Below, piece by piece: positions 1,435 to 4,336 of a stretch of DNA of 36,954 bases. The position numbers were made by a program, and so were the translations under genes. This stretch comes from Clostridia bacterium (GTDB lineage Bacteria > Bacillota > Clostridia > Oscillospirales > Acutalibacteraceae), in the NCBI GenBank assembly GCA_017465825.1, contig JAFTVI010000028.1, positions 1 through 36,954 of the forward strand. Direction: 5' to 3'. The notes beneath the pieces are model-generated. The model was not told the origin of the DNA. It saw only the letters and a list, made by a program, of their open reading frames with translations, and did no database searches. The first letter of the stretch is position 1, and each line of letters starts with the position of its first letter.

Positions 1435-1463
1435 TTAACAATGTACAATTTACAATGTACAAT
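1435..1463. repeat. Fragment of the TGTACAAT-rich miniature repeat
   Basis: Directly after the GH4 stop codon lies TTAACAATGTACAATTTAC followed by AATGTACAAT. The same wording occurs inside the miniature element at 1518-1656 and its relative at 29113-29249. It has no terminal repeat of its own and looks like a broken or partial copy between the gene and its terminator. Confidence 0.5.
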
Positions 1464-1466
1464 AAA

Positions 1467-1506
1467 AGCAGTCACTACCTCAATGGCGGTGACTGCTGAT
1501 TTTTTC
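1467..1506 (+). terminator. Intrinsic terminator after the GH4 gene
   Basis: AGCAGTCAC (1467-1475) pairs with GTGACTGCT (1489-1497), followed by GATTTTTTC. The stem is perfect with a 13-base loop. Confidence 0.9.
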
Positions 1507-1517
1507 AGTGTTTGCGT

Positions 1518-1656
1518 TAAACAATAATTTACCTAATTAACAATGTACAATGTATAATGTACAATAGAGGAAAGGGCTCCGCCCTTTAACCCGATTTATA
1601 TATTATCCGTTAATTGTACATTGTAAATTGTAAATTGTACATTAAATTATTGTTTA
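1518..1656 (+). mobile_element. TA-flanked miniature inverted-repeat element, copy A
   Basis: The ends AACAATAATTTA and TAAATTATTGTT are perfect inverted repeats, and each is bounded by TA. The interior (about 110 bp) has no reading frame and contains TGTACAAT repeats plus AAAGGGCTCCGCCCTTT, a palindromic centre. A near-identical interior occurs in opposite orientation at 29113-29249. TA target duplication and short ends suggest a non-autonomous MITE moved by a Tc1/mariner/IS630-type transposase (inference). No transposase is encoded in the window. Confidence 0.75.
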
Positions 1657-1739: not shown

Positions 1740-2231
1740 ATGACATACAAATGGTTAAATTACAATCCTGACACAATGAATTTTGTCGAAGATTGGCTTG
1801 ATGATGAAACGGTAAGAGTGACGGGGCTTGATGACGGTTTTCAGGATTTTTATGAATATTGGAAAAATGAAAACACACCCAATAGAAATTTTTGGTGCAA
1901 GGTGGTTTACGAAAACGGGGCACCATTTGCAGTTATTGCAATTGGTAAAAATGAGGGTAGGTACGTCATAATGGAGTTGGTCGTAGCCTGTTATGAGAGA
2001 AACAAGGGCAAAGGTACATTACTTTTAAAAGACTTGCTCCAAAACAGTGAAAATATTTTAGGGCAGGAAATAATGACATCCGAAGCGGTTATATTTCCAA
2101 GCAATCCGGCATCACAAAGAGCATTTGAAAAAGCAGGATTTATTTTCAGCCACGCTCACGAAGACGGCGATGCGCTATATTACACATACACAAAAAAACA
2201 AAAAAGCCACGGATTTTGCTCCGTGACTTGA
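1740..2231 (+). CDS. GNAT family N-acetyltransferase
   Basis: A 163-residue cytoplasmic acetyl-CoA-dependent N-acetyltransferase; the acceptor is unknown. The acetyl-CoA pyrophosphate loop reads ERNKGKG (residues 86-92), fitting the R/Q-x-x-G-x-G/A motif, preceded by the beta strand YVIMELVVA. The C-terminal signature NPASQRAFEKAGF (about 122-134) is typical of GNAT motif B. The start is ATG 1740 with AGGAG seven bases upstream, and a consensus promoter sits at 1684-1712. The last ten codons overlap a hairpin that works as a terminator only on the opposite strand (2191-2225), so the 3' end of this gene is shared with the transcript from the neighbouring toxin locus. It is monocistronic. Confidence 0.85.
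   Translation: MTYKWLNYNPDTMNFVEDWLDDETVRVTGLDDGFQDFYEYWKNENTPNRNFWCKVVYENGAPFAVIAIGKNEGRYVIMELVVACYERNKGKGTLLLKDLLQNSENILGQEIMTSEAVIFPSNPASQRAFEKAGFIFSHAHEDGDALYYTYTKKQKSHGFCSVT
2191..2225 (-). terminator. Minus-strand terminator for the toxin mRNA
   Basis: On the minus strand CACGGA-GCAAAA-TCCGTG (2225 to 2208) is followed by GGCTTTTTTGTTTTTTTG. The T-runs lie only on this side, so it terminates leftward transcription. It would let the toxin mRNA run through the whole antisense-RNA gene before stopping. Confidence 0.75.
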
Positions 2232-2256
2232 CAAACGCATTAAGATAGTGTAGAAT
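2228..2256 (+). promoter_or_regulatory. Promoter of the antisense RNA
   Basis: TTGACA (2228-2233), a 17-base spacer and TAGAAT (2251-2256). It starts inside the GNAT stop region and points at the toxin gene. No reading frame with a ribosome site follows, so the product is most likely a small RNA. Confidence 0.85.
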
Positions 2257-2262
2257 ATAATC

Positions 2263-2350
2263 AAGAGGTAACCGTTCAAAGCGGTTAGCTTATAGGATTT
2301 TTATTTATTTATAACTGTCCTGTCTGCCAACAGGGCGGTTATTTTTTTAT
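2263..2350 (+). ncRNA. Candidate antitoxin antisense RNA (about 88 nt)
   Basis: A short transcription unit runs from a consensus promoter to a strong terminator and has no plausible coding region. It begins with AGAGGTAACCGTTC, folds AACCG against CGGTT, and ends in the hairpin at 2313-2340 with a T-run. Its 3' part is fully complementary to the end of the toxin reading frame and its 3' UTR. Its 5' part, TAACCG-TTC, can also pair with GAA-g-CGGTTA in the toxin leader. Convergent antisense RNAs of this kind repress type I toxins. The transcription start is inferred from the promoter. Confidence 0.7.
2313..2350 (+). terminator. Antisense RNA terminator overlapping the toxin stop codon
   Basis: AACTGTCCTGT pairs with ACAGGGCGGTT (11 bp including two G-U pairs) and is followed by ATTTTTTTAT. 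Read on the minus strand the G-U pairs become C-A mismatches, so the hairpin is much stronger for the plus-strand RNA. Confidence 0.85.
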
Positions 2351-2416
2351 GGATTTGATAGCTTCTGTAATCGCAATCACAATAAGTAACGCAACAATCA
2401 AAGTTGTAAGATCCAT
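2339..2416 (-). CDS. Candidate type I toxin: 25-residue hydrophobic peptide
   Basis: The ATG (2416) opens a 25-codon frame ending in TAA. The peptide starts Met-Asp, has one predicted membrane span (LTTLIVALLIVIAITEAI) and a basic tail (KSIKK), the build of Fst-, TxpA/BsrG- and Ldr-type membrane toxins. AAGGAGG lies seven bases upstream but is locked in a hairpin (2422-2442). A full consensus promoter sits at 2478-2506, leaving a leader of about 55 bases, and an antisense RNA is encoded convergently. The sequence does not match the toxin families I can recall, so homology is unproven. The function rests on architecture: small membrane peptide, sequestered ribosome site, overlapping convergent RNA. 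It could instead be a small membrane-regulator peptide. Confidence 0.7.
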   Translation of the reverse strand: MDLTTLIVALLIVIAITEAIKSIKK

Positions 2417-2421
2417 ATGCA

Positions 2422-2442
2422 ACACCTCCTTCCGGAGAGTGT
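2422..2442 (-). promoter_or_regulatory. Hairpin sequestering the toxin Shine-Dalgarno
   Basis: In the toxin mRNA ACAC-t-CTCC pairs with GGAG-GTGT around a GGAA loop. The paired strand contains the AGGAGG ribosome site. Type I toxin mRNAs commonly hide their ribosome site this way until processed or opened. Confidence 0.75.
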
Positions 2443-2477
2443 GCTAACCGCTTCTGTCGCCTCTTGACTACCCGTTT

Positions 2478-2506
2478 ATTATACAAATTATGTCGTATTT
2501 TGTCAA
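2478..2506 (-). promoter_or_regulatory. Promoter of the toxin gene
   Basis: On the minus strand TTGACA (2506-2501), a 17-base spacer and TATAAT (2483-2478), both boxes perfect consensus. It is the strongest promoter by sequence in the window. Confidence 0.9.
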
Positions 2507-2581: not shown

Positions 2582-4336
2582 ATGTCCACCTTTACATACA
2601 AAGACGATAAATTTTATCTTGACGACGAGGAATACACCATAATTTCAGGTGCGATGCACTATTTCCGTATTCCCCGTGAATACTGGTACGACCGCCTTTT
2701 AAAGCTCAAAGAGTGCGGCTTCAACACTGTTGAAACCTACACCTGCTGGAATCTTCACGAGCCGAAGGAAGGCGTTTTTGACTTTTCAGGAATGCTCGAT
2801 TTAGGCGCATACATCGACATTGCAAAGGATTTAGGGCTCAACGTTATTCTTCGTCCGGGTCCGTACATCTGCGCTGAATGGGAATTCGGCGGACTGCCCG
2901 CCTGGCTTCTCACATACAGGGATATGCATATCCGCTGTAACGACGAATCCTTCATTTCAAAGGTTGACAGATACTACAAAGAGCTCCTTAAAATTGCCGT
3001 TCCGCGCCTTTGCACCAACGGCGGCAATATCATTATGATGCAGATTGAAAACGAGTACGGCTCTTACGGCAACGACCACGAATATATGCAGAAAATTGCC
3101 GACATTTACATAGAAAACGGTGTTGACTGTCAGCTTTACACCTCCGACGGAGCGACGTATTTTATGCTCGGTGGCGGCACACTCCCCCAATACCCCTGTG
3201 TTGCAAACTTCGGCTCAAAACCTAAGGAAAATTTCAAGGTGCTTGACGATTTCAGACCAAATCAGCCGAGAATGTGCGGCGAATACTGGTGCGGCTGGTT
3301 TGACCATTGGTACGGCGAGCACCACACCCGTAACGCAAAAGAGCTTGCAGGACTTTTTAAGGATATGCTTGATGCAGGTGCATCACTTAACTTCTATATG
3401 TTCCACGGCGGCACGAACTTCGGCTTTATGAACGGCGCAAACTACTACGACAAGTACGAGCCAACCATTACAAGCTACGATTACAACGCTCTGCTCTCCG
3501 AAGCAGGCGACCTGACACCTGCCTATCACGAGGTACGCAAGGTTATTGAAAAATGGAGCGGCAAAAAGCTGCCCGAGCTTACAGTTAAAAATTCAGAGAA
3601 AAAGGCTTACGAAAAAGTAGAATTAACCGAAAAATGCGATATTTTCACCGCAGCAAAGCTCCTTGCAAAGCCTGTTCATTCAGCCGCACCGAAATTTATG
3701 GAAGATTTGGGGCAGAACTACGGCTTTGTGCTTTATTCAACCGAGCTTGAAGGGCCGAGAGAGGATTGGGAGCTGAATTTTGACGCCGTACACGACAGAG
3801 CAGTAGTTTTTGTAAACGGCAAGTATAAAGGCTATGTTGAAAGAACCCGTCACAAGGACACTATCCGCATTCCCCTTAAAAAAGGAGAAAAAGCAAAGCT
3901 GGACATTCTTTGCGAGAATATGGGCAGAGTGAACTACGGCAACAAAATTATGGACAGAAAGGGACTTTCGGGCATCCGTTTCGGCTTGCAGTACCACTTC
4001 GGCTGGGATATGTATTCCTTGCCTATGACCGACCTTTCCGCCCTTGAATATGAGCCGAATACAGGCAGAACAAAGGTTGCATCATTCCTCAAAGGCAATC
4101 TCAACATTGAGGGCAAGCCTTGTGATACATTTATTAAACTCGACGGCTTCCACAAGGGGATCGTTGTTGTAAACGGATTTAATCTCGGCAGATATTACAA
4201 CGATGCAGGTCCGCAGAAAACACTCTATGTCCCCGCACCGATGCTCAAAGAGGGCGACAACGAGGTAATCGTATTTGAAACGGATAAGACATCGCGAGGA
4301 TATGTAACATTCACAGACAAACCAAAACTCGGATAA
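2582..4336 (+). CDS. GH35 beta-galactosidase
   Basis: A 584-residue family 35 retaining beta-galactosidase that removes terminal beta-linked galactose. It has no signal peptide, so it is probably cytoplasmic and acts on imported oligosaccharides. The TIM barrel covers about residues 1-330, with HYFRIPREYWYDRL near the start, LRPGPYICAEWEFGGLPAWL (90-109), the acid/base region QIENEYGSY (154-162) and the nucleophile in RMCGEYW (Glu234). MFHGGTNFGFMNGA is also typical. The C-terminal part is beta-rich, as expected for the jelly-roll domains, and ends near VVVNGFNLGRY. The start ATG 2582 follows AAAGGAG. It stands alone with its own promoter and terminator. Confidence 0.95.
   Translation: MSTFTYKDDKFYLDDEEYTIISGAMHYFRIPREYWYDRLLKLKECGFNTVETYTCWNLHEPKEGVFDFSGMLDLGAYIDIAKDLGLNVILRPGPYICAEWEFGGLPAWLLTYRDMHIRCNDESFISKVDRYYKELLKIAVPRLCTNGGNIIMMQIENEYGSYGNDHEYMQKIADIYIENGVDCQLYTSDGATYFMLGGGTLPQYPCVANFGSKPKENFKVLDDFRPNQPRMCGEYWCGWFDHWYGEHHTRNAKELAGLFKDMLDAGASLNFYMFHGGTNFGFMNGANYYDKYEPTITSYDYNALLSEAGDLTPAYHEVRKVIEKWSGKKLPELTVKNSEKKAYEKVELTEKCDIFTAAKLLAKPVHSAAPKFMEDLGQNYGFVLYSTELEGPREDWELNFDAVHDRAVVFVNGKYKGYVERTRHKDTIRIPLKKGEKAKLDILCENMGRVNYGNKIMDRKGLSGIRFGLQYHFGWDMYSLPMTDLSALEYEPNTGRTKVASFLKGNLNIEGKPCDTFIKLDGFHKGIVVVNGFNLGRYYNDAGPQKTLYVPAPMLKEGDNEVIVFETDKTSRGYVTFTDKPKLG

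What the first reader, a model, noticed from the sequence alone, without database searches (positions are those of the whole stretch)
2191..2506. Compact candidate type I toxin-antitoxin locus with a convergent antisense RNA
A 25-residue peptide (one membrane span, basic tail) is read from the minus strand with a perfect consensus promoter. Its AGGAGG is held in an 8-bp, GGAA-loop hairpin. From the opposite side a second consensus promoter makes an RNA of about 88 bases that ends in an 11-bp hairpin overlapping the toxin stop codon. That hairpin is well paired only in the plus-strand RNA. The toxin mRNA has its own later terminator, so the full antisense RNA lies inside it. All parts of a par/Fst- or TxpA/RatA-like system are present in about 300 bp, but the peptide does not match the toxin families I know. 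The membrane-toxin role is inferred from architecture.
Basis: partly seen in the sequence, partly recalled or inferred. Interest (0 to 1): 0.85.

Follow-up and report, generated by a model that had tools for sequence, protein, structure and literature searches.

The report
Swappable peptide toxin with RNA antidote
A gut-type bacterium carries about a dozen copies of a tiny gene pair in which a short RNA appears to silence a small, probably toxic peptide, and relatives have kept the RNA control parts while exchanging the peptide for quite different ones.

Summary
Window 2191-2506 holds two convergent consensus promoters, a 25-residue ORF with its AGGAGG in a local hairpin, an ~88-nt antisense RNA gene ending at the toxin stop codon, and a separate terminator for the toxin mRNA. 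It is not a lone locus: this genome holds 12 strong copies of the antisense gene, 10 with a toxin ORF, and cassettes of the same layout occur in related genera and four other families of the order. (2) The peptide is a plug-in: directly upstream of one GH35 gene two species carry class A and two an unrelated class B in leaders 87-94% identical, and other genera put Hol_Tox peptides (a known type I toxin family) in the same layout. Best reading: a type I toxin-antitoxin cassette, BsrG/TxpA-like in layout, not par/Fst, with new peptide classes and toxin exchange on a constant RNA chassis. Transcripts and toxicity are inferred, not shown.

The parts
2478..2506 (-). toxin mRNA promoter, TTGACA-17-TATAAT
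   Evidence: 12 of 12 match
2443..2470 (-). toxin mRNA 5' leader arm (UCAAGAGG...AAGCGGUUAGC), 5' half of the long-distance pairing
   Evidence: inverted repeats I6 and I7; folds to the 3' arm; coevolution
2423..2441 (-). local hairpin holding the AGGAGG Shine-Dalgarno in its 3' arm (minus-strand loop GGAA)
   Evidence: fold; same element in relatives, with an alternative CCAAGC-GAAA-GCGAGG form
2339..2416 (-). 25-residue toxin-like ORF (class A), stop codon included
   Evidence: codon-position pattern for classes B and C, weaker for the mixed A group
2228..2256 (+). antisense RNA promoter, TTGACA-17-TAGAAT
   Evidence: 11 of 12; 11 or 12 of 12 in 43 of 43 loci, window included
2263..2350 (+). 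antisense (antitoxin) RNA, about 88 nt
   Evidence: fold; alignment A1 and model R1; covariation. Ends inferred from promoter and terminator
2258..2289 (-). 3' arm of the toxin mRNA's long-distance pairing, the complement of the antisense RNA's 5' end
2311..2349 (+). antisense terminator; its U run is the AAA-AAA (Lys-Lys) end of the toxin ORF read on the other strand
   Evidence: helix 2
2204..2229 (-). terminator of the toxin mRNA
   Evidence: a hairpin of differing sequence sits at the same place in relatives, read by eye

Best explanation
A type I toxin-antitoxin cassette with a constant RNA chassis and an exchangeable toxin ORF. A strong promoter makes a ~275-nt mRNA whose Shine-Dalgarno is locked at once in a local hairpin and whose 5' leader then pairs with its own 3' end. 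A convergent strong promoter makes a ~88-nt RNA that lies wholly inside the mRNA's 3' half, starts with the same sequence as the leader (so it can replace the leader by strand exchange) and stops at the end of the toxin ORF. The duplex most likely silences and destroys the mRNA; if antitoxin supply stops, leftover stable mRNA is translated and the peptide harms the cell, probably at the membrane. In classes A and B the antitoxin covers only the last two or three codons, the stop and the 3' UTR, so the ORF with its SD hairpin can be swapped without losing control; in class C it also covers the last ten or so codons. Shown by sequence comparison: the parts, their conservation, leader/3' coevolution, coding constraint (classes B, C), toxin exchange. 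Inferred: transcription, silencing, mRNA stability, toxicity.
For: 11 DNA matches, the window's own included, and 12 antisense genes of at least 70 bits in the own genome. Cognate leader/3'-end duplex mean -43.4 kcal against -25.7 for tails of other arm clusters, cognate better on average in 19 of 19 clusters; at least 10 leader-tail pairs in 83 of 83 folds; mismatches of the G-U kind 143, of the A-C kind 40, in 75 distinct arm pairs, clusters 16 to 1 with 2 ties, which places the selection on the toxin-mRNA strand. Codon positions 1/2/3 differ 252/110/427 in class B and 729/372/1222 in class C, summed over pairs. Swap at the GH35 locus; nearest chassis has another toxin class in 11 of 45. Hol_Tox (PF16935) matches 5 of 29 chosen peptides of this layout at E <= 1, best 1.1e-8; L091 has 32 bits over the 23.3 cut-off, three others are below it. 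The 19 class B and C ORFs that two single-query tblastn searches found in the genus all lie on an antisense gene (against 32), while 6 of 40 strong antisense genes have lost the toxin: the direction of loss expected of a toxin.
Against: No transcript or toxicity data. The window's own peptide matches no Pfam or NCBIfam family. SD pairing is the same in full, 3'-truncated and nascent RNA (median unpaired 0.20 in all three), so the long-distance pairing is not what hides the SD and 3' trimming alone is not predicted to open it; in 12 of 83 the SD is 0.3 or more unpaired. Class C peptides are not clearly membrane-spanning (best 15-residue hydropathy 1.15 and 1.44 for the two tested, against 2.90 for the window peptide). 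Codon-position pattern of the mixed A group is weak (966/591/1151). Two of the three class A copies in this genome have lost the usual stop and read on into the hairpin. The 83 cassettes are not independent (many per genome).
Confidence: 0.83

Rival explanations
1. An antisense-regulated small peptide that is not a toxin (a small membrane or signalling peptide) under tight RNA control.
For: Classes B and C are less hydrophobic; toxicity not shown; a dozen copies per genome are tolerated.
Against: Hol_Tox peptides share the layout; 6 of 40 strong antisense genes have no toxin but none of the 19 class B and C ORFs found lacks an antisense gene; unrelated peptide classes replace one another at one locus, which is hard for a specific signalling role.
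Confidence: 0.12
2. A non-autonomous mobile element (MITE-like): the inverted repeats are its ends, and promoters and ORF are passengers.
For: Multi-copy, inverted repeats near both ends, tandem arrays, and presence at the GH35 site in 4 of the 9 genomes whose ~480 upstream bases were read, absence in 5.
Against: Homology runs past the repeats through both promoters to a terminator of differing sequence; the repeats differ between clades but stay complementary with a G-U bias, which acts on RNA and not on DNA ends; class B and C ORFs show coding constraint; no target-site duplication seen by eye at the one filled/empty pair compared (G006/G007; not tested systematically).
Confidence: 0.04
3. 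A true par/Fst (pAD1-like) module.
For: Convergent promoters, SD in a 5' hairpin, small hydrophobic peptide with basic tail.
Against: Repeats are inverted, not direct; the toxin mRNA has its own terminator beyond the antisense gene, so no shared bidirectional terminator; no PxxxG motif in the peptide (motif as described in PMC7472228).
Confidence: 0.01

Closest known systems
bsrG/SR4 and txpA/RatA (Bacillus subtilis TxpA/BsrG family)
   Same: Antisense RNA pairs with the 3' part of the toxin mRNA, SD held in a short G+C helix; SR4 works against the 3' part of helix P1 of bsrG RNA (passages of PMC6562991). Rfam's BsrG model is hit end to end, 26.3 bits in the window, and in 4 of 12 loci scanned, up to 34 bits. 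Hol_Tox peptides occur in the same layout.
   Different: All BsrG hits are below the gathering score 55, and 8 of the 12 loci, the Hol_Tox carriers L091 and L116 among them, gave none at E <= 0.1. The window peptide is not Hol_Tox. The antisense RNA lies wholly inside the mRNA and copies its 5' leader. Toxin classes are exchanged.
par/Fst of pAD1
   Same: Convergent promoters, SD-sequestering 5' hairpin, small hydrophobic peptide.
   Different: Inverted instead of direct repeats, separate terminators, no Fst motif (features from passages of PMC7472228).
aapA/IsoA (Helicobacter) and hok/Sok
   Same: 5'-3' long-distance interaction in the full-length toxin mRNA and, in aapA3, early SD hairpins (passages of PMC6733600).
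   Different: In aapA3 the long-distance pairing hides the SD; here the SD stays in its local hairpin with or without it. The antitoxin here targets the 3' end.
Clostridioides difficile type I modules
   Same: Class Clostridia, small hydrophobic toxins, several per genome.
   Different: A review reports no sequence homology of those toxins with other bacteria's systems (PMC6563280, section 3 read); no direct comparison was made here.

Membership tests
type I toxin-antitoxin system (general) | antisense RNA gene overlapping a small toxin mRNA, each with its own promoter | tested here: met
   same parts in 83 cassettes. Transcripts themselves not tested
type I toxin-antitoxin system (general) | peptide toxic when over-produced and neutralised by the RNA | not testable with these tools
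   needs an expression experiment
TxpA/BsrG family | antitoxin overlaps the 3' part of the toxin mRNA, separate terminators | tested here: met
   (predicted transcripts)
TxpA/BsrG family | toxin matches Hol_Tox (PF16935) | tested here: not met
   window peptide: no Pfam match; 5 of 29 chosen peptides of the same layout do match at E <= 1
TxpA/BsrG family | Rfam RF01412 above gathering score | tested here: not met
   26.3 bits against 55, full length; E 4e-4 in 901 bases, 0.015 in 33,858 bases
TxpA/BsrG family | RNase III-dependent decay of the duplex | not testable with these tools
   needs experiment
par/Fst | convergent promoters | tested here: met
par/Fst | shared bidirectional terminator | tested here: not met
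   plus terminator 2311-2342 and minus terminator 2229-2204 are separate
par/Fst | DNA direct repeats DRa/DRb giving complementary 5' ends | tested here: not met
   the repeats at these places are inverted, so the two 5' ends are alike
par/Fst | PxxxG motif in toxin | tested here: not met
   the peptide has no proline or glycine
aapA/IsoA and hok/Sok type | 5'-3' long-distance pairing in the toxin mRNA | tested here: met
   predicted in 83 of 83 folds; coevolving in 19 of 19 clusters
aapA/IsoA and hok/Sok type | long-distance pairing itself hides the SD and 3' trimming frees it | tested here: not met
   by folding only: SD unpaired probability unchanged on truncation, median 0.20 in both

The most novel reading that the evidence does not exclude
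A toxin-agnostic antitoxin platform: an RNA chassis (leader, 3' pairing partner, antisense gene, both promoters) that keeps any small ORF silent, because its antitoxin mainly touches the 3' UTR. Toxin modules (SD hairpin plus ORF), including non-classical class C peptides (beta-strand-like by pattern, no structure predicted) whose last codons form the antitoxin's terminator, are exchanged by recombination among a dozen or more copies per genome, giving a changing repertoire (perhaps against phages or rivals), while toxin-less antitoxin copies survive as possible anti-addiction genes.
Probability: 0.45. Interest if true: 0.8.

Novelty: new variant of a known kind. Interest (0 to 1): 0.64.

Why it matters
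Type I toxins are usually described as fixed pairs with their antisense RNA (recalled). Here comparison of closely related genomes shows the RNA control part kept while the peptide is replaced, which makes it testable how an antitoxin RNA can be independent of the toxin it guards, and why a genome keeps a dozen such loci. It also offers peptide classes (A to D) without a convincing match in Pfam, NCBIfam or PHROGs, linked by a common layout to a known toxin family, and a named strain with a class C cassette for experiments (Vescimonas fastidiosa MM35).

Tried and rejected
par/Fst membership (three defining features fail). Mobile-element reading (see rivals). Phage or plasmid origin: the 351-base locus has no match in 72,556 plasmid or 50,697 phage records and the 21-base pattern none in viral contigs. 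Single class B and C peptides gave one weak plasmid hit (E 0.6), a class C cassette on the 860,917-base plasmid record of Vescimonas fastidiosa, and one weak phage hit (E 0.02), MT835905.1, whose neighbouring ORFs look by eye like a serine-pathway aminotransferase and a methyltransferase, so that record looks like a bacterial contig. Activation by 3' trimming opening the SD: not supported by folding. Model R1 matched 126 of 250 family genomes at E <= 0.01; weak rows include what looks like a plain terminator (L083) and were not checked one by one, so that count is not used as prevalence. Order survey at E <= 1e-6: 8 of 295 genomes, the own included. A first, strict cassette detector found 23 and was replaced by a looser one: 121 candidates, 83 with both promoters; the 38 dropped rows include real cassettes at contig ends (L021, L030) or with a toxin promoter below threshold (L075, L092, L095, L125, L128) as well as chance ORFs; one of the 83 (L057) was read from a wrong start codon. 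In one search two class C peptides were filed wrongly, giving 15 of 44; corrected count 11 of 45. Literature: nine full-text searches listed no paper that by title or abstract describes this family or toxin exchange on a constant type I RNA; most subscription papers and all bioRxiv preprints are outside that library.

Full report
What is there. The window (contig C21 of genome G000, 2.2 Mb in 37 contigs) has, between a GNAT acetyltransferase gene (1740-2231 +) and a GH35 beta-galactosidase gene (2582-4336 +), two convergent promoters: TTGACA-17-TATAAT on the minus strand at 2506-2478 and TTGACA-17-TAGAAT on the plus strand at 2228-2256. The minus transcript has a leader, an AGGAGG in a hairpin, a 25-codon ORF (2416-2342) and a terminator at 2229-2204; the plus transcript is about 88 nt and ends in a 13-pair hairpin with a U run that overlaps the end of the ORF. 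The U run is the same DNA as the two final AAA lysine codons.

The two RNAs begin alike..UCAAGAGG...AAGCGGUUAGC... Since the antisense gene lies inside the toxin mRNA, the mRNA carries the complement of its own leader near its 3' end, and its minimum-energy fold joins 5' and 3' ends (-91.7 kcal, z -6.9). This is opposite in sense to pAD1 par, where direct repeats make the RNAs complementary (passages of PMC7472228).

It is a family. The own genome has 11 DNA matches, the window's included. A covariance model of the antisense RNA (R1, 42 sequences) gives 12 hits of at least 70 bits in the own genome and 40 in the 11 genomes of the genus; the genus tally of 10 of 11 at E <= 0.01 rests partly on weak hits. 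An exact pattern with 21 fixed bases finds 26 stretches in 11 assemblies of the collection of 84,980 species, titled Clostridia, Clostridiales, Eubacteriales or Ruminococcus, with rectum or colon as source where one is named. Cassettes of the same layout, read by eye, occur in six genomes of four other families of the order (L142-L147, L149, L150), in tandem arrays at about 330-350 bp spacing (L086, L103, L105), and in Vescimonas fastidiosa MM35, whose (incomplete) gene table shows nothing at the toxin.

The RNA parts are under selection. Antisense helices: 96.4% of cells paired against 88.4% in shuffles, 71 cells with both-side changes against 29.3. Antisense promoter: 31 of 43 loci match 12 of 12 and 12 match 11 of 12, against 0.7% of 1,153 control windows at 11 or more. 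Leader and 3' end: in 83 cassettes the cognate duplex averages -43.4 kcal; tails of other arm clusters give -25.7; the cognate is better on average in all 19 clusters, even where the letters are quite different, as in L086. Departures from complementarity are G-U-type 143 against A-C-type 40; without the recurrent site before GCGGU, 113 against 40; by cluster 16 to 1 with 2 ties. That asymmetry points to pairing inside the toxin mRNA rather than mere likeness of two DNA repeats. The 83 are not independent samples.

The peptides. Class A (window) MDLTTLI..EAIKSIKK; class B such as MAKVLMFLIIYVIYKDIKSVTLTIKK; class C such as MPITLTFHIGKITITIQIKVKSNSRHSAK, in which the antisense terminator hairpin lies inside the ORF; class D (L021, L030) with a longer middle. 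Within-class changes fall mostly on third codon positions in B and C (252/110/427 and 729/372/1222, summed over 38 and 111 pairs); the mixed rest, class A included, shows it weakly (966/591/1151). In related genera the layout carries Hol_Tox peptides: 5 of 29 chosen peptides match PF16935 at E <= 1, best 1.1e-8, L091 at 32 bits over the 23.3 cut-off, three others at 12-22 bits; NCBIfam gives weak matches to ComI and PepG1, below their cut-offs for the member shown. Classes A to D match nothing convincing. Rfam's BsrG model matches the window mRNA end to end (26.3 bits, E 4e-4) and, of 12 loci scanned together, L001, L004, L103 and L146 (26.3-34 bits), always below gathering 55; the other 8 loci gave none.

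Toxin exchange. Directly upstream of the orthologous GH35 gene, G000 and G006 carry class A, G004 and G009 class B; G004 has a further, class A copy on the other side of its GNAT gene, about 0.9 kb away. Between L015 (A) and L016-713 (B), leader identity is 0.93 and 3'-half identity 0.96 but SD-hairpin-plus-ORF identity 0.66; the two G004 copies share 0.99 of the leader and 0.67 of the ORF part. Conversely L012, elsewhere in the own genome, shares 0.94-0.95 of the ORF part with the B copies of G004 and G009 but 0.75-0.80 of the chassis parts. In 11 of 45 cassettes of the main arm cluster the nearest chassis carries another class. Of the 9 GH35 loci whose upstream ~480 bases were read, 5 have no cassette there (G001, G003, G005, G007, G008); G007 shares with G006 an upstream coding stretch but lacks the cassette.

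Loss is lopsided. The 19 class B and C ORFs found in the genus by two single-query tblastn searches (not all copies) lie on an antisense gene, as do the three class A ORFs of the own genome (against 32), while 6 of 40 strong antisense genes lack a usable toxin: G000:C10:209, G000:C2:31359, G008:C128:62 (at a contig end), G003:C9:85573, G003:C5:104447 and G003:C8:4112 (read). That fits a harmful ORF and a harmless RNA.

How it probably works. The SD is paired locally in full, truncated and nascent RNA alike (median unpaired 0.20; below 0.3 in 71, 70 and 71 of 83), so early translation is blocked by the hairpin, not by the long-distance pairing. The latter more likely guards the 5' end and keeps a silent, stable pool, and occupies the site that the antitoxin must enter; the antitoxin, whose 5' end copies the leader, can displace it. 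This is inference; the nearest studied case is SR4 acting on helix P1 of bsrG RNA (PMC6562991 passages). In silico duplexes among nine cassettes of the own genome are -81 kcal on average between non-cognate partners (strongest -109) against -161 for cognate ones, so each antitoxin should prefer its own mRNA, with some cross-talk possible.

Verdict. A type I toxin-antitoxin cassette in mechanism and layout (0.83), nearest to BsrG/TxpA but failing its sequence tests, and not par/Fst. New, as far as the searches show, are the peptide classes, the wholly nested antitoxin that copies the leader, and toxin exchange. Papers: PMC6563280 outline and its section 3; PMC6562991, PMC6733600 and PMC7472228 by passages; all others by search listing only.

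Noticed in passing
window 1438-1650; L003 1400-1450: Intergenic repeats of the kind AATGTACAATTTACAATGTACAAT, also seen near another cassette in the same genome; they produce promoter-like matches.
   Followed up: no
L027 1620 and L032 1643 (toxin strand), L021 1414 (genome G001): A recurrent 34-residue acidic ORF, MSxEKxNLExFELEDGEEMTAETLENLTGNGG.., directly beyond the class C cassettes of L027 and L032 and about 1.3 kb from the class D cassette of L021; resembles a peptide precursor leader (recalled, not tested).
   Followed up: no
window 2193-2231: The last dozen codons of the GNAT gene are read from the cassette's terminator and its stop overlaps the antisense -35; the homologue in G004 aligns only over residues 1-152 of 163.
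   Followed up: partly
L002 1552 (+); L003 1598 (minus): Two class A copies in the own genome have a shorter A run, lose the usual stop and read 12-15 residues further; decay or assembly indel.
   Followed up: no
L103, L086, L105, L106, L018: Tandem arrays of two to five cassettes, mostly about 330-350 bp apart, often with differing peptides.
   Followed up: partly
L163 (MT835905.1): Record labelled bacteriophage carries a class C cassette between ORFs that look like bacterial housekeeping genes; probably a bacterial contig.
   Followed up: partly
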